The notes under the pieces are model-generated. The model ran no database searches, had not been told where the DNA came from, and saw nothing but the letters and a program-made list of their open reading frames with translations. Shown piece by piece: positions 2,056-24,424 of a stretch of DNA of 24,424 bases. The position numbers and the translations under genes are program-made. The stretch lies in NCBI GenBank assembly GCA_027886925.1, contig JAPCJN010000016.1, forward strand, positions 3,373-27,796. Direction: 5' to 3'. Position 1 is the stretch's first letter. Each line of letters begins with the position of its first letter. Source of the stretch: Nitrososphaerota archaeon. GTDB taxonomy: Archaea; Thermoproteota; Nitrososphaeria; Nitrososphaerales; UBA183.

Positions 2056-3003
2056 ATGTTGCCTCTCGATCGGCTCGACATGCAGCTCGCGAGAGAAATC
2101 AAGGGTCTTCATGCCAATTCCGCAGGGGACCCTTCTTTCAGAGAGCCTATTCATTCAATTGCGAAGAAATTTGGGATAGATGAAAACACGGTAAGGAGTC
2201 GCATAGAGCGATGGAGAGAGACGAAGTATCTCAGAGGCTGGTGGCTCGGAATCAATCCTACGCTTCTAGGATTTCAGATGTATGAGGCATGGCTGGACGT
2301 TCATCCAGAGTCTTTCAAGGTCAAAGCCATAAAGAAGGTCGAAGCCCTCAACGAGGTCGGGTCGATTAAGGATTACTTCGGGGATTCCTTTTCAGTATCG
2401 CTCTATTGTCGAACCGAATCGGAATTCAAGAACAAGTTAAACCTGATCTCAAGGATCTGCAACTCTGAAAGGGTGAACTGGATCAGAGCGTCGTTCCCAG
2501 AATGCCAGATTTCCCTTTCGAATACTGATTGGAGGATAATCGCCTCCCTTCAGAGCAACCCCTGGAAGTCATTCACAGCCGCCTCTAGGGAAGTCGGCGT
2601 ATCCACTAGGACGGTCAAGAGGCGTGTCTTGAAGATGGCGAAGTCAAACACCGTGTTCCTTCTGGTGGACATCAATCCCAAAGCGATGAAGGGTGCAAGT
2701 TTCGCAGACCTCCTTGTATTCTACGAAGACGGTGAGGCCGGTAGGGAGGCTGACGCGAGAGCGACCGAGCGGTTGGACGAGATGACCATCTTCAAAGAGC
2801 GGGGACCCAACCACTGCATGTTCGCCTTGCAATTGGAGAACATATCTAACGTCAAAGAGATCCTCCAATGGATAAGGAACGTGTCAGGGGTAAGGGACGC
2901 GAGACTGGACATCCTCGAGGACATAATTCTGCTGAGGGACGCGAGACGTGTGGAATCGGGAACAAGACTTAATGACATGATAATCCCTGCCAAGAAAGGA
3001 TGA
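2056..3003 (+). CDS. Lrp/AsnC-like transcriptional regulator with two HTH domains
   Basis: A 315-residue protein built as a tandem repeat. The first winged-HTH is at residues about 4-60 (recognition-helix region DENTVRSRIERWRE) and is followed by an alpha/beta segment. The second HTH is at about 153-200 (REVGVSTRTVKRRVLKM) and is again followed by an alpha/beta domain resembling a RAM-type effector or dimerisation fold. Doubled Lrp/AsnC-like regulators are common in Thaumarchaeota. I chose ATG 2056 because it is preceded by AAGGGG about 4 nt upstream and because the protein-like pattern begins there. The frame is open back to a TTG at 1882, but that N-terminal part looks non-conserved. No metabolic gene adjoins it, so the target regulon cannot be guessed; autoregulation is possible. 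Confidence 0.8.
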   Translation: MLPLDRLDMQLAREIKGLHANSAGDPSFREPIHSIAKKFGIDENTVRSRIERWRETKYLRGWWLGINPTLLGFQMYEAWLDVHPESFKVKAIKKVEALNEVGSIKDYFGDSFSVSLYCRTESEFKNKLNLISRICNSERVNWIRASFPECQISLSNTDWRIIASLQSNPWKSFTAASREVGVSTRTVKRRVLKMAKSNTVFLLVDINPKAMKGASFADLLVFYEDGEAGREADARATERLDEMTIFKERGPNHCMFALQLENISNVKEILQWIRNVSGVRDARLDILEDIILLRDARRVESGTRLNDMIIPAKKG

Positions 3004-3182
3004 AGCCTCCTCCAATCTTTGGCGACCTATCAAGCCTGTCACCAACTCATCCTGCCCGGGCACTGTCGAGTCGCTCGGCGCGCGCTAGATTCCATCCTTC
3101 GGGTCCAATGATTTCGTGTCAGGAAAGCCTGCCTCGCGATTAGCATCGGCACGGGGCAAGGCATCGGCTTCCAATGCAACCT

Positions 3183-3560
3183 CTAGGGGATGAATCTATT
3201 GAGCAAGAAAGTCACCGTCACGATTAACTGCGCAATATCGTCTCCGAATGCAATCTGGTCGCCCATTTCGTTGTAAAGTCCGAAGAAGGTTAAAGCAATC
3301 ATCACTCCGACGACGGCCACGACCATCGTGTTCGTCGATTTCAGTTGATCGGGCGTGTTCTTCTTCCATCTCAAGGCGATGATGACGATGGCGATTAGTG
3401 CCAGGACGACCAATCCACCATCGTCAATTATGTCGCTCACATCGGCGATTTCGTTAATCAGCACCCCAAGAAAAGCCACCAAGGTCACCGAGGAGAAGAA
3501 TAGGTTAACCCTCCTGCGTGAGAACTCTCTCAGAAGGCTCGTCTGTTCAATTGTGGTCAT
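3183..3560 (-). CDS. small integral membrane protein, three predicted TM segments
   Basis: From ATG 3560 the product is about 125 residues: a short basic cytoplasmic N-terminus (LLREFSRRRVNLFF), then hydrophobic segments around FFSSVTLVAFLGVLI, GLVVLALIAIVIIAL and MVVAVVGVMIALTFFGL, with a final moderately hydrophobic stretch near the C-terminus. The longer frame from 3623 adds a non-hydrophobic, poorly coding-like leader, so I prefer the internal ATG. No family is recognised. It is followed on the same strand by nothing for about 1.5 kb and preceded by the IS200-like element, so it is probably monocistronic. Confidence 0.6.
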   Translation of the reverse strand: MTTIEQTSLLREFSRRRVNLFFSSVTLVAFLGVLINEIADVSDIIDDGGLVVLALIAIVIIALRWKKNTPDQLKSTNTMVVAVVGVMIALTFFGLYNEMGDQIAFGDDIAQLIVTVTFLLNRFIP

Positions 3561-3638
3561 CGTCGAAGGTCTACAATATTGTAAGTTAATTTCTCCATGA
3601 GTTGGGCTCACAAAACCGGACACTTACACTGAACTACG

Positions 3639-3656
3639 TTCGGCCTGAAGGCCGAA
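3639..3656. repeat. right-end hairpin of IS200-like element
   Basis: TTCGGCC-TGAA-GGCCGAA: a perfect 7-bp stem with a 4-nt loop, 9 nt past the tnpA stop codon. Confidence 0.65.
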
Positions 3657-3664
3657 GGGTCTGA

Positions 3665-4138
3665 CTAGAAATCCGTCAGCGTGGCCTGCGCCTTCTCCTG
3701 TGGCCTGGTCTCGTAATCGTCGTATTTCATCCAATGCTTCCTTTGACTGTTCTGGACGTAGTACTGGACTGCCTCCGCCGTCGTCGAGCCCACCGACCGG
3801 TAGAAGTAGCCGTCGCTCCAGAAGCTATCGCCCCACAGCTTGCCCTTCACCCTCTCCCACAACTCGTGCCGTATCCTGTGAGCGGACGCGCCCTTGAACC
3901 TCTGCACCATGTGCGGGACCGAATAATTCTTACACCGACTGACGAAGAGGCGCACGTGATCCGGCCCGAACTCGCACGCCTCCATCTTTATCGAGAGCTT
4001 GTAGCACGTCCGCGCGAAGCTCTCCAGGCACGTCCTCCTCACCTCGTCATCCCTGAACACGTCCCTCCGATACTTGGGCGTGAAGATCAGATGGAAGTTT
4101 GACTCCCCGCGACTAGAGCCGACGCTGACCAGCTGCAA
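3665..4138 (-). CDS. tnpA: IS200/IS605-family Y1 transposase TnpA with altered HUH motif
   Basis: A 157-residue protein, normal length for a Y1 HUH single-strand transposase. It opens with the family signature FHLIFTPKYRRDVF, has the region that normally reads DHVHL, and ends with a helix carrying the candidate catalytic tyrosine (EAVQYYVQNSQ). The metal-binding HUH motif reads H-V-R here (GPDHVRLFV): the second histidine is an arginine encoded by CGC, one transition away from CAC. In known TnpA enzymes both histidines hold the divalent metal, so this copy may be inactive or bind DNA only. The TTG at 4138 is the only sensible start for the complete domain. No partner tnpB lies beside it. Confidence 0.85.
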   Translation of the reverse strand: MQLVSVGSSRGESNFHLIFTPKYRRDVFRDDEVRRTCLESFARTCYKLSIKMEACEFGPDHVRLFVSRCKNYSVPHMVQRFKGASAHRIRHELWERVKGKLWGDSFWSDGYFYRSVGSTTAEAVQYYVQNSQRKHWMKYDDYETRPQEKAQATLTDF

Positions 4139-6759: not shown

Positions 6760-7221
6760 TCAGGCGGGAACTTTTCTTTTTTCCGCTGTTTCCCTGGCAC
6801 TCCCAAGGACCTTGTTTATCCCCTCGGTCAATTTCTCGATCGAGATAGGCTTTTTGAAGAAACTTGCGGCTTGGATATCAGGGAATACGGTTTTGAATTC
6901 GGCCGAGTAGACGTCATATGCCGTCATGAAACAGATGCCTACGCGATCATCGATCTTCCTGAACTGTCGATATAGTTCGAAACCAGTCATCGTGGGCATC
7001 CGGATATCAAAGATTGCGAGGTCGTAGCCGTCTGCCTTCACCCTGGCCAATGCCTCGATCGGGTCGTTGTATGCCTCCACAAGGAAGCCTTTGTTCTCGA
7101 GCCCGACTTTGAGGCTGTTCGTGATGTCGGTCTCGTCGTCGACGATTAGGATTTTTCGCTTGCCATTTCTACCGTCTGGCACATTAGATCCACCCGCTCT
7201 TGTCGCGATGGGCGTGGGCAT
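6760..7221 (-). CDS. CheY-like response regulator (receiver domain)
   Basis: From ATG 7221 the protein is 153 residues: a 20-residue disordered lead, then one receiver domain. Key residues are visible: the acidic pair Asp28-Asp29 (ILIVDDE), phospho-acceptor Asp72 (IFDIRMP), Thr100 (CFMTAY) and Lys124 (FFKKP). No output domain follows, so it acts through a partner, plausibly the winged-helix protein encoded just upstream. GTG 7260 would overlap the upstream gene, but GGAGG at 7235-7239 and the 7-nt gap to the upstream stop favour ATG 7221. No histidine kinase is in the window; the cognate kinase would be elsewhere. Single-domain receivers are common in Thaumarchaeota. Confidence 0.9.
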   Translation of the reverse strand: MPTPIATRAGGSNVPDGRNGKRKILIVDDETDITNSLKVGLENKGFLVEAYNDPIEALARVKADGYDLAIFDIRMPTMTGFELYRQFRKIDDRVGICFMTAYDVYSAEFKTVFPDIQAASFFKKPISIEKLTEGINKVLGSARETAEKRKVPA

Positions 7222-7228
7222 TTTGCTA

Positions 7229-7555
7229 TCAGTTCCTCCGTGGAGTCGGTTCTCTCGCACTGGACACTTTCTTTGATGGCTTGACAGCCTTCGGCCGCTT
7301 CAGTTGGTCCTCGATGAATCGTCGCCCCTTCTCCGTCAATTTGAAATGGTCTTTTTCGTCGCCTGAAAGTGATATTCCTTCGATGAACCCCTTTTCCATC
7401 AAGACCTCGAGAACATCATTGACATTCACCTGCACGGCTCTGGTCAGCACGGTTTTCGACGTGTAGTCGGTACCGATAGAGCGCAGAACTACCATCATGC
7501 GTTCGCCTGCCATAGCATCATTCAGGGAACGACTACGGAGATAAACCGTCGGCAT
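7229..7555 (-). CDS. winged-helix DNA-binding protein
   Basis: A 108-residue frame. The core (residues about 15-90) reads as an archaeal winged helix: AGERMMVVLRSIG, VNVNDVLEVLMEKGFIEGISLSG (recognition region and wing) and FKLTEKGRRFIEDQL, with a Lys/Arg/Pro-rich tail. A TATA-like GGTTTATC lies about 30 nt before an internal ATG at 7513, so the leaderless product may be 94 residues starting MAGERMM. It is the first gene of a two-gene unit with the response regulator 7 nt downstream, so the receiver may control this DNA-binding protein's activity. Target genes are unknown. Confidence 0.75.
   Translation of the reverse strand: MPTVYLRSRSLNDAMAGERMMVVLRSIGTDYTSKTVLTRAVQVNVNDVLEVLMEKGFIEGISLSGDEKDHFKLTEKGRRFIEDQLKRPKAVKPSKKVSSAREPTPRRN
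7235..7239 (-). promoter_or_regulatory. Shine-Dalgarno GGAGG deciding response-regulator start
   Basis: GGAGG on the minus strand, 13 nt before ATG 7221 and inside the 3' end of the upstream winged-helix gene. This is the only strong SD nearby. Confidence 0.5.
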
Positions 7556-11731: not shown

Positions 11732-12763
11732 TCAACCCCAGAGCAGCCTGATTATGGCCCGGATGTAGTCCTCGACCTGCGCGAAGGCTATGTCGGCCCT
11801 GACCGTCAGGTTCTCGAACGAGCGCAGGGAGAACTGCTCCGCTGGAGAGGGCGAAGCGGCCCGCGGGTCGAAGACGCCGGCCAGGCCGTTGTAGAACTCC
11901 TGGTGCGGCAGGAAGGCGGCCATCGCCCCGACCATCCCGAAGCAGTAGGCCAACCCCAGCACTCCCCAAGCGAGCCCCCTCGACGGCCTGTAACGGACGA
12001 ACTTCCTTACCATCTTTGTCGTTGGCTCTATCTCCGACAACAGCTCCTTCTTCGCGTCTTCCCCGGTCAGCGTGAAGTGGAGGATAATCGGTTCAAGGAC
12101 CTGTCTGAGGACCCATATCGTCGCGCCCGCCACGAGCAGGGTCGTGAAGACCAGGCCGACCCGCGTCTCCAGGTAGAGAGAGGCCAGCGAAGAGAGGGGC
12201 TGGGGAAGGAGCGCTGCCTGGACGCCGAGGGCGCCGACGACCGCCTCCACGAGGGCGACGAGTGCCAGCGCAGCGACGAGGGGAAGGACGGACTCGAGGG
12301 CGATGCCGAGGACCTGGTAGCCCACAGGGCCCGAGGACGTCAACTTCACCTGCCGCCCTCCGAGGAGCTTCACGCTGCGGGCGTAGCTGAAGCCCGCCAG
12401 GGCTAGGAAGGATGCCGCTATCACGAGGAACACGACGTCGGCAAGGCCGAACCGGGCTCCGACGAACGTGATGGTGCTCGAGACGCTGGCGGCGATGAAG
12501 AAGGAAGCCACGAGCAGAGACACGAGGATGGAAGGGCGAAAAACGAAGACCGCGTAGACCGAGGCAAGGAGGAAGAGCCAGGGGAGGAATCGCACGAGCG
12601 TGACAAGGGCACCGTTGGGCGCCCCTTGCGAGGCGAGGACGCCGGGATTGGAAGTTATCGCGACTGAGAAGATAGCTTCGGCGACGATCGCTGGGAGAGA
12701 GAGGGCGTAATAGACCAGGGCGTCTTTCGTCGCATGCTTGGAAAATGCCAGTGCGGCTCTCAT
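11732..12763 (-). CDS. polytopic membrane protein of MoxR/DUF58 operon
   Basis: A 343-residue protein whose ATG (12763) overlaps the TGA of the DUF58 gene as ATGA, so translation is probably coupled. I see about seven or eight hydrophobic segments, for example YYALSLPAIVAEAIFSVAI near residue 18, WLFLLASVYAVFVF, ILVSLLVASFFIAASV, VVFLVIAASFLALAGFSYA, VLPLVAALALVALVEAVVGAL, VFTTLLVAGATIWVL and AWGVLGLAYCFGMVGAMAAFL. A charged loop lies between them (TGEDAKKELLSEIEPTTKMV) and a soluble C-terminal part of about 50 residues. I do not recognise a named family. Its fixed place at the operon's end suggests that it is the membrane partner of the MoxR/DUF58 proteins. The longer frame to 13099 is a shadow of DUF58. 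Confidence 0.75.
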   Translation of the reverse strand: MRAALAFSKHATKDALVYYALSLPAIVAEAIFSVAITSNPGVLASQGAPNGALVTLVRFLPWLFLLASVYAVFVFRPSILVSLLVASFFIAASVSSTITFVGARFGLADVVFLVIAASFLALAGFSYARSVKLLGGRQVKLTSSGPVGYQVLGIALESVLPLVAALALVALVEAVVGALGVQAALLPQPLSSLASLYLETRVGLVFTTLLVAGATIWVLRQVLEPIILHFTLTGEDAKKELLSEIEPTTKMVRKFVRYRPSRGLAWGVLGLAYCFGMVGAMAAFLPHQEFYNGLAGVFDPRAASPSPAEQFSLRSFENLTVRADIAFAQVEDYIRAIIRLLWG

Positions 12764-14103
12764 CAGGAGCCCCCCTTCCTCCTGAGCTCCTCCACCTGGA
12801 GGACTAGCTTGGCGAAAAGGTCGTCGGGACCCACGTCGAAGACGGGAACGCCTAGCGCCAGCGCCTGGTTCACGAGCCTCTTGCGCGTCCTCCATTGGTG
12901 GGAGGTCCCGATGGAGTAGATCATCCGGTCCAGCCCCTTCAGCCCATGGGCTTCGAAGAGCGGCGTGTATGGCGAGGTGACTATGACTTCGTGTTTCATC
13001 CCCAATAACTGCTTCAGCGGGAGCAGATCGCGGTCGAAGTCGAGGTCTGTGATGACGAAGAAGAGGGTCTTTCCCTTGACTCGCCCCAGGGCCAGGCATC
13101 TGTTGATCCCGTTCTTCAGCGCCTCAGCCGAGTACTTCTCGGGGCTCAGTGCGCCGAGGACCTTCAACAGCTTGTAGGTCTGGGCCTGTCCCTTCGCCAG
13201 AGGAAGCACCAAGGCTGGCGCATCTCCCTGGAGGACGGTGAGGCCTACGAAGTCCCCGCGCCTCGAGAGGTAGCTGACGAGAGACGCCACTGCCCGTGCG
13301 GCGTAGTCGAGCTTCGTCCTCCCCGCCTCGCCGTAGGCCATCGTCTCGGTCGAGTCGAGCACGACCATCACGTTGAGCTGCGTCTCCGCGTTGAGTTCCC
13401 TGACCATCAGGTTGCCGGTCTTCGCCGTCGCGTGCCACGCGATTCGCTTGAACGGGTCGCCGGGCTCGTATGGCCTGATGTCTGCGAGCTCCAGCCCCTC
13501 GCCCTTCTTCCTCGAGGTGACAATCCCTCCATATGCGGAGATCGCGGCTGCGGCTAGCACTCCCCGTGCGAGTTCCTTCGCGAGCGGGGTCACCTCGACC
13601 TCGTCCTGGACGCCGTCCTTGACCCTCCTCTCGTAGAAGAAGAGACCCGCGATGTCCCGGGTCACCAGCCTGAGAGGCCCAAAGGCGTTGGATCCGATGG
13701 AGGTAGGCGTTATCTCGTAGTGCAGTTCGGCGAAGCCCTTCGCGGGCGCTTGGATGAGGGCGACGTTCGTGCCCGACTTTAGCCTGAAGAAGGGGGGGTA
13801 GGAGTCGATGACCTCGAGGGAGAGCCTCACGAAGGTGCGATTCACGAAGCCCAGCCCTACGTCGAGGGTGGCCCCCTCGTCGATGCGCGGGCGGAACTTC
13901 CTCGATATGTCGAGCCTGTCGAGCGCCTTGACCTTCATCTGGAGCAGCAGCTTCGCGACGTAGTAGTAGAGGAAGAGCGCGACTCCCGCATAGAGAAGGA
14001 AGGCCTGCGACTCCAAGGCGCCCACTATCCCGAGCGCCACGAGCACCGCCGAGAGGAGAAGTATTGTGCTACCCCTGGGAGTCCGCCTGAATACCGCGCT
14101 CAT
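12763..14103 (-). CDS. DUF58 protein, membrane-anchored with VWA-like domain
   Basis: A 446-residue protein. Two N-terminal TM segments (about residues 11-53) are followed by a beta-rich region, then the DUF58 hallmark at about 202-236: EGLELADIRPYEPGD, the invariant IAWHATAKTGNLMVREL-type segment. A von Willebrand A-like fold follows with a metal-site motif at Asp250 that reads D-S-T-E-T-M, threonines replacing the usual serines of DxSxS. DUF58 proteins pair with MoxR ATPases in envelope assembly or cofactor maturation systems. The ATG lies 3 nt after the MoxR stop, and the gene's own stop overlaps the next start. Confidence 0.92.
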   Translation of the reverse strand: MSAVFRRTPRGSTILLLSAVLVALGIVGALESQAFLLYAGVALFLYYYVAKLLLQMKVKALDRLDISRKFRPRIDEGATLDVGLGFVNRTFVRLSLEVIDSYPPFFRLKSGTNVALIQAPAKGFAELHYEITPTSIGSNAFGPLRLVTRDIAGLFFYERRVKDGVQDEVEVTPLAKELARGVLAAAAISAYGGIVTSRKKGEGLELADIRPYEPGDPFKRIAWHATAKTGNLMVRELNAETQLNVMVVLDSTETMAYGEAGRTKLDYAARAVASLVSYLSRRGDFVGLTVLQGDAPALVLPLAKGQAQTYKLLKVLGALSPEKYSAEALKNGINRCLALGRVKGKTLFFVITDLDFDRDLLPLKQLLGMKHEVIVTSPYTPLFEAHGLKGLDRMIYSIGTSHQWRTRKRLVNQALALGVPVFDVGPDDLFAKLVLQVEELRRKGGS

Positions 14104-14106
14104 GCG

Positions 14107-15048
14107 CTAGGGGACCTTCACGGTCTGGATGAGCTGCTGGACTATGGTGAGCTGCGTCACCCCGTCGAGGACCGCCTCCTGTCTCAAGATGAGCCTGTGG
14201 GCGAGGACGTGCGGAGCGACCTTCTTGACGTCGTCGGGTATCACGTAGTTCCTCCCCTCGATCATTGCCAACGCCGCCGCGGCAGTCTGCAGGGAAGTCG
14301 CCGCCCTTGGGGACCCTCCCAGCCTCACCGCCGCGTGCGCCCTCCCCGCCTCGACGATGTCGGTGATGTAACCGCGGATGGAATCGTCGACGTTCACGCT
14401 CCAAATCGCCGAAGGGATCAGGCTCTGGAGCGTCTTCAGGTCTGTCACTTCGCTCACCTTCGACTCCATGATGGTCCTCAGGTTCTTCAACATCAGAATC
14501 GACTCTTCCCTCGTTGGGTAGCCGATCTCTATCCTCATCAGGAACCTGTCGATCTGGGCTTCTGGCAAAGGATAGGTGCCCTCGAATTCTATGGGGTTCT
14601 GGGTCGCGAGGACTACGAACGGGGACGGCAGAGGGATCGTCGTCCCTTCGATGGTCACCTGCCGCTCCTGCATCCCCTCGAGAAGGGCAGACTGCGTCTT
14701 TGGGGAGGCGCGGTTTATCTCGTCGGCGAGGATGATGTTCCCGAAGATCGGCCCCTTCCTGACCTTGAAGTCGGAGGTCTTCTGGTCGAACACGTAGCTT
14801 CCGATGATGTCGGAGGGGAGGAGGTCTGGCGTGAACTGTATCCTTTCGAACTGGACGCCGAGGGAGCCCGCGAGCGCCTTCGCCATGGAGGTCTTGGCGA
14901 CGCCCGGGACCCCCTCCAGGAGGACGTGCCCCCCGGCGAACAGGCATGCCACGATGAGCTTCAGCTCCTCCGTCTTGCCGACGATGACCTTGGAGACCTC
15001 TGATGCGATCCTCTCCGAGACGTCCTTCACTTGGGCTGCCTGGCTCAT
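14107..15048 (-). CDS. moxR: MoxR-family AAA+ ATPase
   Basis: A 313-residue protein of normal MoxR length. Walker A is GVPGVAKT (46-53), Walker B is IILADE (105-110), the sensor 1 region is ATQNP (148-152), and the arginine-finger segment IDRFLMR begins near 166. The C-terminal lid contains [14 protein letters not shown]. MoxR proteins act as hexameric chaperone-like ATPases that remodel or activate DUF58/VWA partner proteins. The protein is cytosolic and probably docks on the cytoplasmic parts of the DUF58 and DUF4350-like proteins encoded on either side. The intergenic gaps are 33 nt upstream and 3 nt downstream, so it is operonic. Confidence 0.95.
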
Positions 15049-15081
15049 GCGAGCTCACGTTGTTCCGTTCTCGGCAATTTC

Positions 15082-16623
15082 TTAGGCCCTCACTCGCTCC
15101 CTCATGCGGTATTCGACCTTTTCTTTGTCGGACTGCCTCTCGGCCTCCTGCTCTTCTCCGGCAATCGTGATGCCGAGCTGGTTCAGGAAGGCTTCGGAGT
15201 CCCGGGTCATCGCGGACGCGAGAGCTTTCCAGCGGAGGACGGGCGGGAAGAGGAACCTCCTTCTTCCGGTTGCGTAGTCGTGCAGCCGCGCAAGGCTGAG
15301 GAAAAGACGTTTTGCGCTTTGGGCGCCATCAGTGCCTATCTCGCGGGCGAGGTCGCTCTCCCCGATCGAGGATATGCCCTTCCCGAATTCGTCGAGCAGG
15401 ATGGAATCGAGCACCTCGTAGAGCTGCGCCAGCGTGGCGACATAGAAGCTCTTGGAGCGCGAGGTCTGGAGGAAGTCGAGCCTCGCCCTGGACTCGGCGA
15501 CGATGGTGCGCTCCACTTCGGGGGCGGGCTGGTCGTCCTTCCCCTTCTTCTCGGGGGAGAACCATTTGGTGATGGCGCCGTAGATGGAGATGAGCAGGAT
15601 GCTCGCGACGAGCGCCCTCGCGCCCGCGTCCGAGACGTGCACCCCCAGGCTCCCAAGGAAGCCGCTGACCTGAGAGGGGAAGCTGTTATAGTAGCCGTTC
15701 ATGCTCGAGAGGTCCTGCTCCAGGGCGTAGGTCACGAGAGGACCGATGGGGATGCCCAGCTGGAACTTCGGGGGCTGAGGCCCCGCGTAGTGAGCGTTGT
15801 CGAGCACGATGGTCACGTTCTGCCCAGGCCCAAGTCCGTTCAAGGCGGGCTGCGTCACGAGGCCAGGGTTGGGGTCCACCCAGTTTACCATCGCCGAGAC
15901 GAATCTCTTTTCGTCTATGCCTCCTTGCGGCTGCGCGTAGTCGAACAGGCCGTTGGTGAACGGCGCGGAGTCGGTTATCACCAGCGCCCGCGATCCTGCG
16001 GGAGAGGTCCCGGCGGCGATGACCGTCCTGGGGCCGAGAGCCGTGTTTGAGGCGTCGGATGACGATGCGCCGGTCGCGGCGACCGAGTGGAGGTTGGAGG
16101 GAAGGGTCAGGGACAACGGCGACGCGATGTCGATCACGCCCGAGGTGATGTTTCGCCCCAATGCGAGGTCCAACGTGAACACTCTCTTGTCCTGGAAGGG
16201 CGAGGATGGGTCGAGTATGGCCGCTCCGGTCACGTCCGCCCCCAGCTTTTGCAGCAAGGCCCTGTTGGTCGCGTTCCCCTCCGCCATCAGGAGGGATACT
16301 CTCCCGCTCTGGTAGCCAGCGACGACCGCCTGCGTCTCGCCTGCGGTGAGCGCGACGTCGGCGCCTATCAGGAAATACGCCACGTTCTGCTTTCCTCCCA
16401 AGGCGCTGACGACCTGTTGCGATTCGTTTGCGACTATGACGTGATACCCGCTCTCGTGAAGGTAGGAGAGAAACATCGATGTCCCTGACTGGGAGGTGTC
16501 CGCCGGGCTTGTCCCTCCGTCCCCGCTTCCGCCCGACCCGCTCACCCCGATCGAGGAGGGGGAGTAGATGACCGCGATCAGGGCGATGGCTCCGAGGACG
16601 GTCCCGAACTGCCGCAGCTTCAT
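15082..16623 (-). CDS. DUF4350-like membrane protein
   Basis: A 513-residue protein with an N-terminal anchor (residues 7-22), a Gly/Ser linker, a DUF4350-type ectodomain (about 44-330; YHVIVANESQQVV, ALTAGETQAVVAGYQSGRVSLLMAEGNA typical of this amidotransferase-like fold), a second TM (about 336-353), and a cytoplasmic helical tail of 150 residues rich in Arg/Glu. DUF4350 proteins commonly sit in MoxR/DUF58 operons. The ATG at 16623 overlaps the TGA of the upstream gene (ATGA). The cytoplasmic tail is where MoxR or the DUF4129-like partner could bind; that is inference. Confidence 0.85.
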   Translation of the reverse strand: MKLRQFGTVLGAIALIAVIYSPSSIGVSGSGGSGDGGTSPADTSQSGTSMFLSYLHESGYHVIVANESQQVVSALGGKQNVAYFLIGADVALTAGETQAVVAGYQSGRVSLLMAEGNATNRALLQKLGADVTGAAILDPSSPFQDKRVFTLDLALGRNITSGVIDIASPLSLTLPSNLHSVAATGASSSDASNTALGPRTVIAAGTSPAGSRALVITDSAPFTNGLFDYAQPQGGIDEKRFVSAMVNWVDPNPGLVTQPALNGLGPGQNVTIVLDNAHYAGPQPPKFQLGIPIGPLVTYALEQDLSSMNGYYNSFPSQVSGFLGSLGVHVSDAGARALVASILLISIYGAITKWFSPEKKGKDDQPAPEVERTIVAESRARLDFLQTSRSKSFYVATLAQLYEVLDSILLDEFGKGISSIGESDLAREIGTDGAQSAKRLFLSLARLHDYATGRRRFLFPPVLRWKALASAMTRDSEAFLNQLGITIAGEEQEAERQSDKEKVEYRMRERVRA

Positions 16624-17744
16624 GCCTCGTCTTTCCCCATTGTGAAGAAGGCCGTCTCAGCGCTGTCTGCATCGGGCTGTCCGACGCTCTGGCCGGAGAA
16701 CTTCGCCTTCTCGTAGAGGGAGCTAATCGTCTTGACGTGTGGCTCCTCCTGCCTGCTCTCGCACTTTGATGAGAATTCCCGAGCGGTCTCCGACTCGAGC
16801 TTGGGTACGCCCCTCCGCGCCATTAGGCTGACCGCCTTGCCGAAGTAGAATTCGATCCTCCTCCTGGGATCGCTGGGGATGAAGTCGGAATCGACGCCGT
16901 CGTCGCGCACGCCTCCAAACGAGGCTGGCAGGCGTGGAAGGCGCTGCGAGCCGACCAGTCTCATGACGCGGTTTCTTGAAAGGAACAACGCCGCGACGGC
17001 GGCGAGTATGATCACGGGGATGGCGACGACTGTGGGTGTGATGGCGGGAAGGCCTCCGGCGACGCCGCCGACTGAGACCGACGGTCCGCCGACGGATGGG
17101 AGGGAGAGGCCAGGGAACCCGGATACGCCTGGGAGCTTGATTGGCGAGCCCCCCGCTTGGCCGCTGCTTCCTGCGAAGGCGTTCTGGCTGAGGAGAGCCG
17201 AGTTCTGGAGCAGCTGGCTGGCGATGGCCGGATTCGCGTATTGCAAGAGATTCGCGAGGGTCTGCATGTCCACGGAGAGCTTCTGCTGCGTCTGACTGGA
17301 GGTGTTGGCGGCCTGGCTGGTCTGCGATGCGTTGAGGAGACTTGCCAGCGCGTTCGCGTCGATCGAAGCTCCGTTGCCCCCGACCGACATGCTCTGCAGG
17401 AGCGCGTTCAAAGACTCTGACACGTTGTTCTGCGGGTCAGAAGAGTAATTCTGGAGCTGGAGGAGGGTCGACGCCGCACCGTTGAGGTCCCCGCTGTTGA
17501 GCTGAGACTGCAACTGCGTCAGCAGCTGCTGGAGCTGGGTATCGTTACTCCCTTGCGCTAGACTGCCAAGAGCGGAGTTCAACTGCTGGGAACTGATGGT
17601 CGGGGCGGGGGTGAGCGGTCCTGAATTCGAGTCGTCCGCGGCGAGCGCTGGGACCGCGAGAAAGCTCCCGAAGAGCAGAAGCGTTGCCGTGAGCAGAATA
17701 AATGGCCGAGCGGCTAGCCCACGGCCCTTCCCTGTAGCCCTCAT
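16620..17744 (-). CDS. DUF4129-like protein with exported Gln/Ser/Asn-rich domain
   Basis: A 374-residue protein, first gene of the operon. A signal peptide (residues about 11-35, ending VPALAA) is followed by about 200 residues of low-complexity Gln/Leu/Ser/Asn sequence with helical periodicity and a Gly/Pro/Ser-rich stretch, then a TM (237-256), then a cytoplasmic domain of about 90 residues (RRRIEFYFGKAVSLMARRGV, ETAREFSSKCESRQEE, SSLYEKAKFSGQ) that matches the DUF4129 pattern. DUF4129 usually follows a transglutaminase domain in bacterial and archaeal MoxR loci; here none is present. A strong TATA box lies 29 nt upstream, so the mRNA is leaderless. Confidence 0.75.
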   Translation of the reverse strand: MRATGKGRGLAARPFILLTATLLLFGSFLAVPALAADDSNSGPLTPAPTISSQQLNSALGSLAQGSNDTQLQQLLTQLQSQLNSGDLNGAASTLLQLQNYSSDPQNNVSESLNALLQSMSVGGNGASIDANALASLLNASQTSQAANTSSQTQQKLSVDMQTLANLLQYANPAIASQLLQNSALLSQNAFAGSSGQAGGSPIKLPGVSGFPGLSLPSVGGPSVSVGGVAGGLPAITPTVVAIPVIILAAVAALFLSRNRVMRLVGSQRLPRLPASFGGVRDDGVDSDFIPSDPRRRIEFYFGKAVSLMARRGVPKLESETAREFSSKCESRQEEPHVKTISSLYEKAKFSGQSVGQPDADSAETAFFTMGKDEA

Positions 17745-17848: not shown

Positions 17849-19018
17849 CTAGCCCAACGCCTGGTCGAGGTCTGCCTGCAAGTCTTCTACGTCCTCGAGC
17901 CCGAGGGCGAGCCTTACCAGGTTCTCTCCTATCCCTAGCTCCTTCCGGACTGCGGGCGAGAGCGTCTTCGAAGCGCTCGTTATCGGATAGTTGAGGAGCG
18001 ACTCGGTGCCCCCTAGGCTCGGCGACGGCGTGATCAGTTTGATCTTCTTAAGGACGTCGAGAGCCTCTCGCTTTCCGCCCTTGACCTTGAAGCTCAAGAC
18101 CCCGCCGTAGAGCCCGTGCTCCAAGAATAGCTTCGTGGCCATCTTGTGGTAGGGGTCGTCCTCGAGGCCAGGGTAGTGGACGCTCTCGACCCTGGGATGG
18201 TCGTGGAGGAACTTTGCGAGCGAGAGGGCATTTTTGCATTGGACGTCGAAGCGCACCTTCAGGGTCGCAACCCCTCGGAGCGCGAGGAAGGACTCGAACG
18301 GCGCCATTATGGACCCCAGCCTCCGCCGAAACTCCCAGAGCTCGACCAGGTCGAGGGGGTCGTTCAAGGCCAATGCCCCGCCCACGATGTCGTTGTGCCC
18401 GCCCATGTACTTGGTGACGCTGTGGATGCTTAGCCATGCCCCGTTCTCCAGCGGGCGGTAGAGGAGCGGCGTCGCGAAGGTGTTGTCGACGACGAGCTTC
18501 GCCCCGACCTCCTTGCACCTCTTCGCGATCGATGGGATGTCTACCACTCTCAGGAGCGGGTTCGTTATCGTCTCTACGAGGACGAGCGCCACGCCGGGCT
18601 TGACCTTCTCGAGGAAGTCGTCCGTGTCTGGCCCGGCCAACACGGTCTTGATGCCGAACTTCGACAGGTTGAGCGCAAGGTCCTGAGTGGTCCCGTAGGA
18701 CTCCTTTGTGATCACGAGGGTATCTCCGGAGCTCAGCGCGGTGAGGTACACCGCCGATATGCTCCCCATCCCGCTGTTGAAAGCGAGCGCCTCCTTCCCT
18801 CTCTCAAGCTTCGCGACTACCTTCTCGAATCCTCTGACGGTGGGGTTCTCCTCTCGCGAATATTTTTGCTCGAAGCCCCGGTCGGACTTCCTCGCTTCGC
18901 CCGTCCTCCTGTCAGGGTGCTCGAAGATTGTGGAGAGGTAGAGGGGGACCTTGAACGCGCCGGTCTCCACGTCGTAGTAGTCGTGGCCGTGGATGCTCTC
19001 CGTGGAGAACTTGGGCAT
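17849..19018 (-). CDS. cystathionine gamma-synthase/lyase-family PLP enzyme
   Basis: From ATG 19018 the protein is 389 residues, standard for Cys/Met metabolism PLP enzymes. Key features are YSREENPTV (residues 53-61), the SGMGS phosphate-binding segment (82-86), Asp178 (LVVDNTFATP) and the PLP lysine Lys203 in SVTKYMGGHNDIVGG. The last third has SLGGTESLLNYPITSA, typical of the family. It could be cystathionine gamma-synthase, gamma-lyase, O-acetylhomoserine sulfhydrylase or methionine gamma-lyase; sequence alone does not decide. An 18-residue upstream extension to 19072 exists but is less family-like. It lies about 1.8 kb from the CysO-like/E1/rhodanese gene on the same strand, so a sulfur amino-acid role for the neighbourhood is plausible. 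Confidence 0.92.
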   Translation of the reverse strand: MPKFSTESIHGHDYYDVETGAFKVPLYLSTIFEHPDRRTGEARKSDRGFEQKYSREENPTVRGFEKVVAKLERGKEALAFNSGMGSISAVYLTALSSGDTLVITKESYGTTQDLALNLSKFGIKTVLAGPDTDDFLEKVKPGVALVLVETITNPLLRVVDIPSIAKRCKEVGAKLVVDNTFATPLLYRPLENGAWLSIHSVTKYMGGHNDIVGGALALNDPLDLVELWEFRRRLGSIMAPFESFLALRGVATLKVRFDVQCKNALSLAKFLHDHPRVESVHYPGLEDDPYHKMATKLFLEHGLYGGVLSFKVKGGKREALDVLKKIKLITPSPSLGGTESLLNYPITSASKTLSPAVRKELGIGENLVRLALGLEDVEDLQADLDQALG

Positions 19019-19118
19019 GAGCTCTAACGGGCATCCCACCGCTGACCCATTCATAAACATGACGAAATGCATAGTCGCATAGGAATAAGCCCGAGGGAGA
19101 GCGCCGGTCGCCCGGCAG

Positions 19119-20825: not shown

Positions 20826-22259
20826 TCAGTATGTCGACAGCTCAGGCTGGACCTCGGAGACCCAGGCCCTCATACCGCCTTTGAGGTTCTTCGCCCTCTT
20901 GAACCCGAGCCCCTGGAGAAACCGGGTGGCCTGGGCCGACCTCGATCCAGACAGACACGTCACCGCTATCTGGTCGGCTGTGCTCAGCTCGTTGACCCTT
21001 TCAGGTAGCTCTCCCAACGGGATCAGTCGCGACCCGTCGATGTGATTTATCTCGTATTCCCAGGGCTCTCTGACGTCGACGACCACGACGTCCTTTTCGT
21101 GGGCGATCCAGTCCTTCAATTGCATCGGGGTCACCTCCAGGTCGGGAGCGAGCTCTTCGGCGACGCCGCAGAAGGCCTCGTAGTCGATCAGCTTCGTCAC
21201 CGAGGGATGAGGGCCGCAGACGGAGCAGTCCGGGTTCTTGCGGAGCTTCAGCTCCTTGAAGCTCATGTCGAGGGCGTCGAAAAGGAGGAGCCTCCCGATC
21301 AGCGGCTTGCCTTTGCCCAGTATCAGGTCGATGGCCTCCGCCGCCTGGATGCTCCCCATGATCCCTGGGAGGACTCCGAGCACGCCGCCCTCTGCGCAAG
21401 AGGGGACGAGTCCCGGCGGGGGCGGCTCGGGATAGAGGCACCTGTAGCAAGGCCCCTCCCTGGCGAAGAAGACCGATGCCTGTCCCTCGAACCTGAATAT
21501 GCTGGCGTAGACGTTGGGCTTGCTGAGGAGGACGCAGGCGTCGTTGACGAGGTAGCGCGTGGGGAAGTTGTCGGTCCCGTCGAGGATCACGTCGTAGCCT
21601 CCGAGTATGTCCAGCGCGTTAGAGGAGTCGAGCCTGACCTTGTGCACCTCCACGCTGACGTGCGGGTTGATCTGCAGCAGCCTCTCCCTTGACACCTCGG
21701 CCTTGCTCTTGCCCACGTCGGCCTCTGAATAGAGCACCTGGCGATGGAGGTTGCTCTTCTCTATCGTGTCGAAATCGAGGATCCCGATCCTGCCCACCCC
21801 GGCAGCCGCCAGGTATGTGGCCGAGGGCGTGCCTAGGCCCCCCGCACCGATTATCAGGACGCTGGCGGACTTGAGCTTCCTCTGCCCCTCCATGCCCACC
21901 TCTGGCATTATCAGGTGCCTGCTGTAGCGCGCGAACTCACCGCTCGAGAAGGAGACCTGCGGACGGCCATCGCCGCCGTCGTGAGCCCCCCCGGCGACGG
22001 CTGGGACTATCATCAGGGTGTCGCCGTCCTTCAGCGCGGTGCCTTCGCCGTCCCTGTATCTGATGTCCTCCTCGTTGAGGTAGACGTTGATGAAGTTCCT
22101 GAGCCGGCCGCTCTCGGAATAGAGGTGCTTCCGCAGGTTCGGGAAGGAGGTCGTGAGCTCCTTCAGGGCGTCGCCCACGGTGTGGGCGTTTAGCTGGAGC
22201 TCGTCCTCGTTGTTCGTATGCTGCCTCAGAGCGGTCGGGATGATCACCTTGACGGGCAT
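20826..22259 (-). CDS. CysO/MoaD-like Ubl - E1 (MoeB/ThiF) - rhodanese fusion
   Basis: A 477-residue three-domain protein. Residues 1-91 are a beta-grasp ubiquitin-like domain opening VKVIIPTALRQHT and ending VPAVAGG, closely patterned on mycobacterial CysO. The diglycine (Gly90-Gly91) is followed by a short linker AHDGGDGRP. Residues about 105-360 are a MoeB/ThiF-type adenylyltransferase: nucleotide loop GAGGLG (138-143), HRQVLY, DGTDNFPTRY, Cys288 in SCAEGGVLGVLPG, and zinc cysteines 271, 274, 345 and 348. Residues about 375-477 are a rhodanese with active-site Cys435 in CLSGSRS. The activity expected is adenylation of a Ubl C-terminus and conversion to a thiocarboxylate for sulfur transfer (cysteine, thiamine, molybdopterin or tRNA thiolation). 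It starts 7 nt after the JAMM gene, with GGAGG upstream. Confidence 0.95.
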   Translation of the reverse strand: MPVKVIIPTALRQHTNNEDELQLNAHTVGDALKELTTSFPNLRKHLYSESGRLRNFINVYLNEEDIRYRDGEGTALKDGDTLMIVPAVAGGAHDGGDGRPQVSFSSGEFARYSRHLIMPEVGMEGQRKLKSASVLIIGAGGLGTPSATYLAAAGVGRIGILDFDTIEKSNLHRQVLYSEADVGKSKAEVSRERLLQINPHVSVEVHKVRLDSSNALDILGGYDVILDGTDNFPTRYLVNDACVLLSKPNVYASIFRFEGQASVFFAREGPCYRCLYPEPPPPGLVPSCAEGGVLGVLPGIMGSIQAAEAIDLILGKGKPLIGRLLLFDALDMSFKELKLRKNPDCSVCGPHPSVTKLIDYEAFCGVAEELAPDLEVTPMQLKDWIAHEKDVVVVDVREPWEYEINHIDGSRLIPLGELPERVNELSTADQIAVTCLSGSRSAQATRFLQGLGFKRAKNLKGGMRAWVSEVQPELSTY

Positions 22260-22266
22260 GGTTCGG

Positions 22267-22716
22267 TCAGTCCTCCTCTTTCTCTTTCCCTTCAGCCACT
22301 CCGTCTACTATCTCTATCGTCTCCTCCGCAACGTCTGTGTGATTCTCATTCGGGAGCCATGACCTCGTGTCCTTGGCCTCTCCTTTTGGGACGGATACCA
22401 CGACATAGGAATACCACGGGAAGGAGTGCTCCAGGTCAAACTTCGAGAGGGTGGCCGGATAGTCAGGGTGCGAATGATAGATGCCGGCGATGGCCATGCC
22501 CTTTCTGGCGGCCTCCCTGTCCGCTTTGAAGAGCTCGAGCGGGTCGATGTGATAGCGGTCGTTCTTCGTTCCCGGAAAGGCGTTCCTCATACGCACCGCG
22601 TCGACGACGTTCTTCCCGTCGTTCGCGATCAGCAAGCCGCAGCACTCTTCAGGGTAGGTCGACTCTGCGTGCGCATGAACCTTCTCGAGGGTCCCTCTCC
22701 CAATCTTGATTACCAC
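22267..22716 (-). CDS. JAMM/MPN+ metalloprotease (Mec/SAMP-protease-like)
   Basis: A 149-residue protein with a complete JAMM zinc-protease signature: Glu24 in YPEECCGLL, then His81-Ser-His83-Pro, Ser91 and Asp94 in IYHSHPDYPATLSKFD. These match stand-alone prokaryotic JAMM enzymes such as mycobacterial Mec, which releases cysteine from CysO, and archaeal SAMP isopeptidases. A Glu/Asp-rich tail of about 25 residues ends the protein. The start is GTG 22716 with AGAGGG ahead. It is the first gene of a two-gene unit with the Ubl-E1-rhodanese fusion (7-nt gap), so it probably cleaves that fusion, its Ubl-cysteine adduct or Ubl conjugates. Confidence 0.93.
   Translation of the reverse strand: MVIKIGRGTLEKVHAHAESTYPEECCGLLIANDGKNVVDAVRMRNAFPGTKNDRYHIDPLELFKADREAARKGMAIAGIYHSHPDYPATLSKFDLEHSFPWYSYVVVSVPKGEAKDTRSWLPNENHTDVAEETIEIVDGVAEGKEKEED
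22272..22276 (-). promoter_or_regulatory. Shine-Dalgarno GGAGG for the Ubl-E1-rhodanese gene
   Basis: GGAGG near the 3' end of the JAMM gene, 12 nt before ATG 22259. It supports that start and translational coupling. Confidence 0.5.
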
Positions 22717-22910: not shown

Positions 22911-24424
22911 TTACATTCCGGGCATGCCGCCCATTCCGCCCATCCCGCCCATGCCTCCTCCGCCGCCCGCTCCCGGCGGTGGGGCGCTCATCTTGCTCGA
23001 GGCTATGACGTCGTCGATTCTCAGGAGCATCGAGGCTGCCTCCGTCGCTGCCTTGATTATCTGGAGCTTGACCGCGACTGGCTCCACCACTCCTCTGGTC
23101 ATCATGTTCGCCACCTTCCCGGACATCGCGTCGACTCCAGCCCACTTCTCGCCCTTGCCGTGCCTTGCCCTGAGTTCTACCTGGGTGTCGATTGGGTCCA
23201 TGCCCGCGTTCTCAGCGAGGATGGTCGCTATCGTCTCGATCGCCTCGGAGAACTTCAGCGCGGCCAGCTGCTCTCGGCCCGTGAGCTTCTGGGCCCACTC
23301 TCTCACTTGATATGCGATTTCGACCTCGGGTGCGCCTCCTCCTGCGACGATGGCGGGCTTCTCAATCACGTCCTTGACCACCATTATCGCGTCGTGAATC
23401 GACCTCTCCGCCTCGTCGACGACTCGCTGCGAGCCTCCGCGTATCAGGAGCGTGACCGCCTTGGGATTCTTTGCCCCCTCGATGAAGACCCACTTGTCCT
23501 CCTCCACCTTCCTCTCCTCCGCAATCTTGGCGTGCCCTAGGTCTTTCGAAGAGAGGTCGTCGAGGTTGGTGACTATCCTTGCGCCCGTCGCCTTTTGTAT
23601 CTTGGTCATGTCTGACTCCTTCACTCTTCTGACGGCGAGGATGCCTGCCCGCGCGAGGTAGTTCTGGGCGCTGTCGTCGATGCCCTTTTGGCAGACGAGG
23701 ACGTTCGCTCCTGCGTCGATTATCTTCTGGACCATGCCCTTGAGGATGTTGTCTTCCTCGTCAAGGAATGACTGCATTTGGTCGGGGTCGTTGATCCTGA
23801 TCTCGGCGCTGAACTCGGTCTTCTCGATCTCGAGCGGAGAGTTGATGAGCGCTATCTTCGCGTTGTCCACCTTCTTCGGCATCGCCGAGTGGACGACTTC
23901 CTTGTCGAGCGCGACTCCCGAAATTAGCTTTGTGTCCATCAGGGAGCCTCCGGGCTTCTTCTCGACCTTGACGTTGTCGATGTCCGCCTTGTAGCCGTCG
24001 CCGGACTTTTCTGCGACCTGCATGACCGCGTCCACGATGAGGCCTGCTAGGAACGGGGCGTCGTCAGAGACCAGCTTCGTCTGCATGCTCGTCGTCGCTA
24101 CCTTGACCAGGTCCACCTTCGAGGTCGGGTCAACTTTCTCGGCCAGCTTCTCGAGAATCTGCTCGGCCTTCTCCAGGGCCTTCATGTAACCGTCGACGAC
24201 GACTGTCGGGTGAACGTCTTGGGTGACCAGCTCCTCCGCCTTCTCAAGCAGGGCGCCGGCGAGTATCACGGCAGACGTGGTCCCGTCGCCGACCTCGTTG
24301 TCGGTGGCCTTGCTGATTTCCACCATCATCTTCGCTGCCGGATGCTGCACGTCGATCTCCTTCAACATTGTCGCCCCGTCGTTCGTGATGGTGACGTCGC
24401 CGAGCGAGTCGACGAGCATCTTGT
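22911..24424 (-). CDS. thermosome subunit (group II chaperonin), partial
   Basis: A chaperonin of the CCT/thermosome type, cut off at the window end; about 40 N-terminal residues are missing because the frame continues as K-M-L-V-D to the last base. Visible marks: the ATP-site motifs [11 protein letters not shown] and [12 protein letters not shown] near the N-terminus, the apical domain with [16 protein letters not shown] and [14 protein letters not shown], the second equatorial half with [12 protein letters not shown], and a Gly/Met-rich C-terminal tail ([15 protein letters not shown]) that projects into the folding cavity. It folds cytosolic proteins in a hetero-oligomeric double ring; archaea often carry two or three paralogues. 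Highly conserved and probably abundant. Confidence 0.97.

What the first reader, a model, noticed from the sequence alone, without database searches (positions are those of the whole stretch)
20826..22716. CysO-like modifier fused to its own E1 and rhodanese, next to a JAMM protease
Seen: the Ubl domain ends AVAGG at residue 91 and is followed without a stop by a linker, an E1 domain and a rhodanese; the JAMM gene lies 7 nt upstream. Known: in Mycobacterium tuberculosis separate CysO, MoeZ (E1-rhodanese) and Mec (JAMM) carry out thiocarboxylate-based cysteine synthesis, and JAMM enzymes trim extra residues after GG in some ThiS-like proteins. Inference: here three of these parts are one operon and two are fused. 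The diglycine can work only if a protease, probably the neighbouring JAMM, cuts after Gly91. This would be a self-contained precursor-processing sulfur-carrier system.
Basis: partly seen in the sequence, partly recalled or inferred. Interest (0 to 1): 0.78.

Follow-up and report, generated by a model that had tools for sequence, protein, structure and literature searches.

The report
Sulfur carrier fused to its activator
In this archaeon a small ubiquitin-like sulfur carrier is made as the front end of the enzyme that activates it, and comparison with relatives suggests that the neighbouring protease must cut it free before it can carry sulfur for making sulfur amino acids.

Summary
On the minus strand a JAMM protease gene (22716-22267) lies 7 nt before a 477-aa Ubl-E1-rhodanese fusion (22259-20826) with an internal diglycine at residues 90-91. 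The fusion is not unique: it recurs in Acidobacteriota, Gemmatimonadota, Armatimonadota and other bacteria, and in Nitrososphaerales. A JAMM ORF lies directly upstream in 68 of 80 related loci. GG is kept in every fused relative aligned, while the linker behind it varies. Natural splits act as an experiment. The 5 splits found in one archaeal class stop exactly at GG, and none of those genomes has a JAMM at E<=1e-10; all 114 genomes classed as fused do. Six other splits keep 1-26 residues after GG, and all have a JAMM in the locus. So JAMM maturation of the fused Ubl is well supported but not shown, and the rule has exceptions. The 2006 literature already lists the operon with cysteine synthase and suggests such cutting. 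New variant of a known kind.

The parts
22267..22716 (-). JAMM/Mec-like metalloprotease, 149 aa, GTG start; Glu24, His81-Ser82-His83, Ser91, Asp94
   Evidence: PF14464 79.1 bits; motif H[ST]HPx6Sx2D in 70 of 71 JAMM ORFs of this set and Glu24 in 70 of 71
20826..22259 (-). Ubl-E1-rhodanese fusion protein, 477 aa
   Evidence: widespread homologues
21987..22259 (-). CysO-like ubiquitin-fold (ThiS/MoaD) domain, residues 1-91, ending AVAGG
   Evidence: PF02597; best solved relative of this part 3dwg_C, E 4.9e-17 over 2-91 (identity as CysO recalled); GG invariant
21951..21986 (-). variable linker, residues 92-103; predicted cleavage between Gly91 and Ala92
   Evidence: 7-23 residues long among 121 rows, next residue Ala 75 / Ser 33 of 121; pLDDT under 50 at residues 88-98 only
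21210..21950 (-). E1-like adenylating domain, about residues 104-350; GAGGLG 138-143, CxxC 271-274 and 345-348, conserved Cys288
   Evidence: PF00899; motifs; Cys271, 274, 288, 345, 348 invariant in 66 sequences
20856..21128 (-). rhodanese domain, residues 378-468, persulfide-loop Cys435
   Evidence: PF00581; CLSGSR at 435; Cys435 invariant in 66 sequences
17849..19072 (-). cystathionine-gamma-synthase-family PLP enzyme, probable sulfur acceptor enzyme
   Evidence: PF01053 366 bits; NF006347 521.9 over cut-off 477; 76% and 65% identical to genes directly downstream of the fusion in L001 and L003
19119..20096 (-). TFB (archaeal TFIIB) gene between the fusion and the PLP enzyme; not thought to belong to the system
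   Evidence: PF00382

Best explanation
The locus makes a ubiquitin-fold sulfur carrier as the N-terminal pro-domain of its own activating enzyme. (1) The fusion is one open reading frame (read directly from the sequence). (2) The neighbouring JAMM metalloprotease cuts after Gly91 in a flexible linker, freeing a carrier that ends in GG and an E1-rhodanese that keeps residues 92-477 (inferred from comparison, not shown). (3) The E1 domain adenylates Gly91, and a persulfide on rhodanese Cys435 turns it into a thiocarboxylate, as in MoeZ/CysO (inferred from the families). (4) A PLP enzyme takes the sulfur onto an activated amino acid. In most bacterial relatives this is a CysM-type cysteine synthase. 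In the window's closest archaeal relatives it is a cystathionine-gamma-synthase-family enzyme, so the product is more likely homocysteine, then methionine (weaker inference, about even odds). (5) The same JAMM may also hydrolyse the carrier-amino-acid adduct and recycle the carrier, as Mec does.
For: GG at 90-91 in 121 of 121 rows while the linker varies from 7 to 23 residues; GG in 75 of 75 rows with those columns among 80 bacterial and archaeal loci plus the query. JAMM ORF ending within 250 nt of the Ubl start in 68 of 80 loci, and a JAMM upstream in 13 of 13 fetched fused loci of the window's archaeal kin. Of the 12 loci without it, 10 genomes have a JAMM over Pfam's cut-off, in 8 of them beside a CysM-type gene. 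Natural splits: 5 of 5 splits found in the archaeal class stop exactly after GG, and 0 of those 5 genomes have a JAMM at E<=1e-10, against 114 of 114 genomes classed as fused. Six splits with tails of 1, 1, 2, 7, 15 and 26 residues after GG all have a JAMM in the locus. Splits need 7 changes on the E1 tree, at least 5 forced. CysM-type gene upstream in 51 of 67 loci with room; cystathionine-gamma-synthase-family partner in 6 of the 13 archaeal loci and in the window, CysM-type in 5 of 13. The GG and linker are the only stretch with pLDDT under 50. Precedents (passages): MoaX of M. tuberculosis is cut at Gly82/Ser83 by an unidentified protease and needs the cut (PMC4326299); an archaeal JAMM cuts SAMP precursors (PMC6043591).
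Against: No cleavage was observed. JAMM also occurs without the fusion: 13 of 26 genomes with an E1 but no fused Ubl have one at E<=1e-10, one of them (G192) with a free bare-GG Ubl close to its E1 (L136), and genomes such as G085, G107 and G136 have a strong JAMM but no E1 match at all. The 1e-10 line was drawn after seeing the values: at 1e-12 the counts are 112 of 114, 0 of 5 and 10 of 26, and at 1e-3 they are 114 of 114, 2 of 5 and 24 of 26. Bare-GG CysO coexists with Mec in M. tuberculosis (3dwg_C ends at the residue aligned to Gly91; PMC3227635), so JAMM is not only a maturation enzyme. Genomes are not independent: the archaeal bare-GG splits fall at two places on the tree. In the Ubl-E1-TBP type, which makes up nearly all of the 114, no JAMM was seen in the fetched flanks, so there the link is presence in the genome, not neighbourhood. 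Two loci have JAMM and E1-rhodanese but no Ubl found between them (L209, L214). In the window a TFB gene separates the PLP enzyme. The enzyme's substrate cannot be read from the sequence. The fusion passes the cut-offs of two NCBIfam models named MoeB.
Confidence: 0.7

Rival explanations
1. The Ubl is mainly a protein modifier (SAMP/Urm1-like): JAMM matures it and removes it from tagged proteins, and sulfur transfer is secondary.
For: The JAMM's only NCBIfam match is desampylase and the Ubl matches SAMP1; HvJAMM1 and SAMP1 are such a pair in Haloferax (PMC4443979, start of abstract in search listings only).
Against: Both matches lie below their cut-offs (54.9 of 130; 58.2 of 60). A rhodanese domain and Cys- or Hcy-forming PLP neighbours are common in the loci. 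A dual role cannot be excluded.
Confidence: 0.15
2. Molybdenum cofactor role: the fusion is MoeB with an attached MoaD, as public records name it.
For: Four of the 120 listed relatives carry the source name MoeB (P0077, P0084, P0097, P0115). The fusion passes two NCBIfam models named MoeB: NF006444 453.2 over 449 and NF004281 297 over 266. In G014 the fusion is the only E1 found, and a free Ubl sits beside MoaE, so its E1 half probably serves MoaD too.
Against: It scores highest against MoeZ, and the equivalog TIGR02355 moeB is missed (236.2 bits, cut-off 376.55). No MoaE was found in G013, which has the fusion (draft genome). The recurring neighbours that were identified are CysM-type or cystathionine-gamma-synthase-family genes.
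Confidence: 0.12
3. The Ubl is released by some other protease, and the JAMM serves only to hydrolyse the carrier-amino-acid adduct, as Mec does.
For: MoaX is cut in mycobacteria by an unidentified protease (PMC4326299); Mec acts on the CysO-cysteine adduct (PMC3227635).
Against: The 5 archaeal genomes whose Ubl was split off right at GG lack a strong JAMM match, which an adduct-only role does not predict; splits with a tail as short as one residue still have a JAMM in the locus.
Confidence: 0.15
4. The Ubl is never released; it is a regulatory or docking domain and the diglycine is inherited but idle.
For: Iyer and others noted a different Ubl-ThiF fusion beside free ThiS and suggested a different role for that domain (PMC1779556, passages).
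Against: GG is invariant while the linker next to it drifts; split forms stop at or near GG. An idle internal GG would not be expected to be kept in every relative.
Confidence: 0.05

Closest known systems
CysO-CysM-Mec-MoeZ cysteine pathway of Mycobacterium tuberculosis
   Same: CysO-like Ubl, MoeZ-like E1-rhodanese and Mec-like JAMM; CysM-type gene in most bacterial relatives (PMC3227635, passages)
   Different: Ubl fused to the E1-rhodanese with an internal GG; the partner in the window is a cystathionine-gamma-synthase-family enzyme, not CysM
Operon type 4c of Iyer et al. 2006 (ThiS/MoaD, E1-rhodanese, JAB, cysteine synthase), listed for Acidobacteria, Actinobacteria, Bacteroidetes/Chlorobi, Chloroflexus and Proteobacteria (PMC1779556, passages and table rows)
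   Same: Same gene set; that paper also suggests that JAB may cut a fused ThiS/MoaD off to free its C-terminus
   Different: The passages read give the Ubl as a gene of its own and do not mention the three-domain fusion, Nitrososphaerales, or the link between fusion and JAMM
Ubl-E1-TBP fusion of Thaumarchaeota (Makarova and Koonin 2010, PMC2948915, section 3.3 read)
   Same: N-terminal Ubl fused to an E1; the similar fusions found here have an internal GG
   Different: No rhodanese in the two scanned; about 33-40% identical to the window's fusion; no JAMM hit in the flanks fetched; a separate deep branch of the E1 tree
MoaX (fused MoaD-MoaE) of M. tuberculosis (PMC4326299, abstract and passages)
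   Same: Internal Gly-Gly must be cut (Gly82/Ser83) to free the carrier
   Different: Fused to MoaE, not to an E1; protease unidentified
HcyS-HcyD-MetY homocysteine pathway of Wolinella succinogenes (details recalled; seen only as a citation in PMC5764234, original not held)
   Same: JAMM trims a carrier with a residue after GG; thiocarboxylate sulfur used for homocysteine
   Different: Carrier not fused to an E1; partner there is O-acetylhomoserine sulfhydrylase
CsJAMM and SAMP precursors of Caldiarchaeum (PMC6043591, passages)
   Same: Archaeal JAMM that processes Ubl precursors; one SAMP and the JAMM have consecutive locus tags
   Different: Precursors described as SAMPs; no E1 fusion mentioned in the passages read

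Membership tests
CysO-CysM-Mec-MoeZ pathway | CysO-like Ubl with C-terminal GG | tested here: met
   best solved relative 3dwg_C, E 4.9e-17 (CysO by recall); GG at 90-91, but internal
CysO-CysM-Mec-MoeZ pathway | carrier is a separate protein | tested here: not met
   one ORF of 477 aa, no stop after GG
CysO-CysM-Mec-MoeZ pathway | MoeZ-type E1-rhodanese | tested here: inconclusive
   architecture met; NF005902 MoeZ is the best family at 498.8 bits but below its cut-off of 647
CysO-CysM-Mec-MoeZ pathway | CysM partner | tested here: not met
   no PALP domain among the 20 window ORFs scanned; a CysM-type gene lies upstream in 51 of 67 related loci with room, identified by its best model TIGR01138, whose cut-off is missed in 5 of 5 tested; whole genome of the window not held
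JAMM metalloproteases | Glu and H-S-H-P-x6-S-x2-D motif | tested here: met
   Glu24, His81-Asp94; PF14464 79.1 of 25
MoeB (Moco) family | NCBIfam models named MoeB | tested here: inconclusive
   NF006444 453.2 of 449 and NF004281 297 of 266 passed; TIGR02355 236.2 of 376.55 and NF005646 496.9 of 633 missed
MoeB (Moco) family | works with MoaD and MoaE | tested here: inconclusive
   MoaE found in 2 of 3 related genomes, each beside a free Ubl and not beside the fusion; none found in G013
SAMP / desampylase system | SAMP1, UbaA and desampylase equivalog models | tested here: not met
   NF041918 58.2 of 60; NF047750 336.2 of 450; NF041370 54.9 of 130
HcyS-HcyD-MetY pathway | O-acetylhomoserine sulfhydrylase partner | tested here: inconclusive
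   same PLP superfamily, but TIGR01326 286.8 of 495.1; best is NF006347 cystathionine gamma-synthase family, 521.9 over 477
JAMM-processed Ubl precursors | cut after GG by JAMM | not testable with these tools
   only comparative evidence

The most novel reading that the evidence does not exclude
Fusing a sulfur carrier to its own E1 and freeing it with a JAMM is a widespread, repeatedly gained or lost way of making a 1:1 carrier-activator pair. It is used for cysteine in many bacterial phyla and for homocysteine in the window's archaeal kin. A distant Ubl-E1-TBP fusion that is common in the same archaeal class works the same way, so that JAMM maturation is a gateway for carrier activation across the class.
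Probability: 0.35. Interest if true: 0.68.

Novelty: new variant of a known kind. Interest (0 to 1): 0.52.

Why it matters
Some public records name such proteins MoeB (molybdenum cofactor). The neighbours and split forms point instead to sulfur-amino-acid synthesis through a carrier that must be cut out of its own activator. If true, it gives a wide natural case for the 2006 suggestion that JAMM proteases free fused sulfur carriers. It also makes that suggestion directly testable with two small proteins, and it offers a route by which uncultured archaea of this class could make homocysteine.

Tried and rejected
Viral origin: one viral-contig scan with the Ubl found no relative. The window's own genome could not be searched, so CysM, MoaE, E1 and free Ubls were looked for in three related genomes instead. 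JAMM-Ubl proteins P0071 and P0093 were set aside, because their E1 parts turn into unrelated sequence after a short stretch, as after a frameshift. A strict 'bare GG means no JAMM' rule was rejected, because CysO and Mec coexist in M. tuberculosis and because of G192. A simple horizontal-transfer story was not adopted: the archaeal rows sit at the base of the rhodanese-type clade with middling support, and the tree's bootstrap had not settled. Counting limits: I classified 145 of the 176 genomes that had a match, because that call's match list was cut off; the other 31, and the 24 without a match, are not in the table. Fused or split was read from the match span and the stops column, and checked in the DNA only for the fetched loci. 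Fisher values there (5.5e-9 for fused against split at 1e-10) treat genomes as independent and overstate the case.
Full report
What is there. The minus strand of the window carries a JAMM gene (22716-22267, 149 aa) and, 7 nt on, a 477-aa protein (22259-20826) with ThiS, ThiF and rhodanese domains in one frame. The Ubl ends PAVAGG at residues 86-91, and the frame runs on through a 12-residue linker into the E1. The E1 has GAGGLG, two CxxC pairs and Cys288, and the rhodanese has Cys435; these cysteines are invariant in 66 aligned sequences, as are Gly90 and Gly91. The JAMM has Glu24 and HSHPDYPATLSKFD. The window is archaeal (thermosome and TFB genes). The nearest row on the E1 tree is L001, a Nitrososphaerales archaeon, 89% identical there.

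It is widespread. A protein search limited to the Ubl part found 204 proteins. The 120 listed were aligned with the query, and all 121 rows keep GG, while the linker behind it ranges from 7 to 23 residues; the next residue is Ala in 75 and Ser in 33. In these, GG is present in all 75 rows that have those columns (74 loci and the query); the other 6 loci are split genes. A JAMM ORF ends within 250 nt of the Ubl start in 68 of 80 loci. Of the 12 others, 10 genomes have a JAMM over Pfam's cut-off and 2 do not (L030, L051). Of those 10, 8 lie beside a CysM-type gene, and one, in L012, lies just downstream of the fusion and lacks the full motif. Three of the 12 loci are cut by a contig end within 650 nt of the Ubl (L030, L051, L070). 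A CysM-type gene lies upstream in 51 of 67 loci with at least 1.8 kb held. 'CysM-type' rests on the best-scoring model, TIGR01138; in 5 of 5 tested its cut-off is missed, though the broader cysKM model is passed in 2. In L014 this gene is fused to the JAMM. A class-V aminotransferase, the cysteine-desulfurase fold, recurs in 12 loci and an Rrf2 regulator in 13 (one member of each cluster was scanned).

Natural splits as a test. In a sample of 200 genomes of the class of L001's genome, 176 had a match. From the listed matches I classed 114 genomes as fused, 5 as split by stops and 26 as E1 without Ubl; 31 more had only matches that the list left out. Nearly all of the 114 have the distant Ubl-E1-TBP type. 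In the fetched fused ORFs of that type GG is kept, in 20 of 20 and in two more (L196, L200). All 5 splits stop exactly after GG: L137, L140, L147, L192, L193. A JAMM at E<=1e-10 occurs in 114 of 114 fused, 0 of 5 split and 13 of 26 E1-only genomes. The line was drawn after seeing the values; at 1e-12 the counts are 112, 0 and 10, and at 1e-3 they are 114, 2 and 24. Two of the five splits have only a weaker JAMM match (7e-7, 2e-7) and three have none. L193 and L147 are close kin.

Elsewhere, L013, L048, L063, L066, L067 and L212 are splits that keep 2, 7, 1, 1, 26 and 15 residues after GG. All six have a JAMM in the locus, adjacent in five, and about 6 kb away on the other strand in L067. L051 ends at bare GG and its genome has no JAMM over the cut-off, but its locus starts at the contig edge and its Ubl frame has an internal stop. 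On an E1 tree of 115 rows the split state needs 7 changes, at least 5 forced by well supported branches. The archaeal bare-GG splits fall at two places on it (L193 was not in the tree). This pattern, residues after GG together with a JAMM and bare GG without one, is what a maturation role predicts. It is not a strict rule: bare-GG CysO and Mec coexist in M. tuberculosis, G192 has a free bare-GG Ubl near its E1 and a JAMM at 3.7e-12, and JAMM occurs in genomes with no E1 match (for example G085, G107, G136).

Archaeal partners. A search of 151 genomes of the order at E<=1e-100 matched 35. With the earlier loci, 13 distinct rhodanese-type fused loci of the window's kin were in hand: L001, L002, L003, L133, L201, L202, L203, L205, L206, L207, L208, L210, L213. 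One more match that starts at residue 1 (G272, at a contig end) was not fetched. All 13 have GG and a JAMM upstream. Six have a cystathionine-gamma-synthase-family gene in the same cluster (L001, L002, L003, L133, L201, L202). Five have a CysM-type gene (L205, L206, L207, L208, L213). For L203 and L210 none was found in the flank held. The window belongs with the first set: its enzyme at 19072-17849 is 76% and 65% identical to those of L001 and L003, although a TFB gene lies between. Two loci titled Euryarchaeota (L004, L055) also have the fusion, a JAMM and a CysM-type gene. By contrast, 14 archaeal loci with an unfused E1-rhodanese have no JAMM in the flank held, and 2 (L209, L214) have a JAMM but no Ubl found.

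In two related genomes (those of L001 and L002) a cystathionine-beta-synthase- or cysteine-synthase-like gene lies beside a cystathionine-gamma-lyase/synthase-like gene. In the L001 genome the first scores best against cystathionine beta-synthase, below the cut-off. Such a pair would allow cysteine to be made from homocysteine. I therefore favour homocysteine as the first product, at about even odds.

Other Ubls and E1s. In the genome of L002 the fusion is the only E1 found, and the only other Ubl found lies beside MoaE. After cutting, the E1-rhodanese probably also serves MoaD, as MoeZR serves both MoaD and CysO in mycobacteria (PMC3227635, abstract and passages). The genome of L001 has the fusion but no MoaE found. 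Against my reading, the fusion passes two NCBIfam models named MoeB (NF006444 and NF004281), though it scores highest against MoeZ; both enzymes share this E1 domain.

Structure. An AlphaFold2 model from 66 sequences has mean pLDDT 87.9 and pTM 0.66. The only stretch of three or more residues under 50 is 88-98, the GG and most of the linker. This fits an exposed cleavage site but does not show one.

What was known. Iyer et al. 2006 (PMC1779556, passages and table rows) list the ThiS/MoaD, E1-rhodanese, JAB and cysteine synthase operon and suggest that JAB may free a fused ThiS/MoaD. Makarova and Koonin 2010 (PMC2948915, section 3.3 and passages) report Ubl-E1-TBP fusions in Thaumarchaeota, shared with bacteria. 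Narrandes et al. 2015 (PMC4326299, abstract and passages) show that MoaX must be cut after its diglycine. Fuchs et al. 2018 (PMC6043591, passages) report that an archaeal JAMM cuts SAMP precursors. The Wolinella homocysteine pathway is recalled, and seen only as a citation in PMC5764234. I found no paper on the three-domain fusion or on the link between fusion and JAMM in the listings of searches, which cover open-licence papers only; most of the listed papers were not opened.

Verdict. The claim of a self-contained cysteine system is not: this is a widespread variant of the CysO/Mec/MoeZ kind, with a different acceptor enzyme in the window's closest relatives.

Noticed in passing
L141-L161, for example L153:1198-2529 and 2540-3757: A second Ubl-E1 fusion (about 440 aa, no rhodanese in the two scanned; TBP-like end only marginal in L141) with internal GG is common in the class. 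In L153 it lies beside a threonine-synthase gene (over the TIGR00260 cut-off), and similar ORFs of about 405 aa recur beside many others; thiocarboxylate use on a homoserine ester is conceivable but untested.
   Followed up: partly
L014:1-1470: One ORF, starting at the contig edge, joins a CysM-type PLP domain to the JAMM domain, upstream of the Ubl-E1-rhodanese gene.
   Followed up: partly
L016:10206-11426 and L032:9366-9818: Class-V aminotransferase (cysteine-desulfurase fold) and Rrf2 regulator genes recur in 12 and 13 of 80 loci, a possible sulfur source for the rhodanese.
   Followed up: partly
L209 and L214: JAMM directly before E1-rhodanese with no Ubl found between them.
   Followed up: no
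L194 and L198: JAMM beside a different E1 without Ubl fusion in two genomes of the class.
   Followed up: no
window 11732-17744, minus strand: MoxR-type AAA ATPase, DUF58/vWA and DUF4129 genes and a weak DUF4350 match (under its cut-off) in a row.
   Followed up: no
window 3665-4138, minus strand: IS200-like Y1 transposase; a response-regulator gene lies at 6760-7260, minus strand.
   Followed up: no
window 22911-24422, minus strand: Thermosome subunit gene cut off by the window edge, upstream of the JAMM gene.
   Followed up: no
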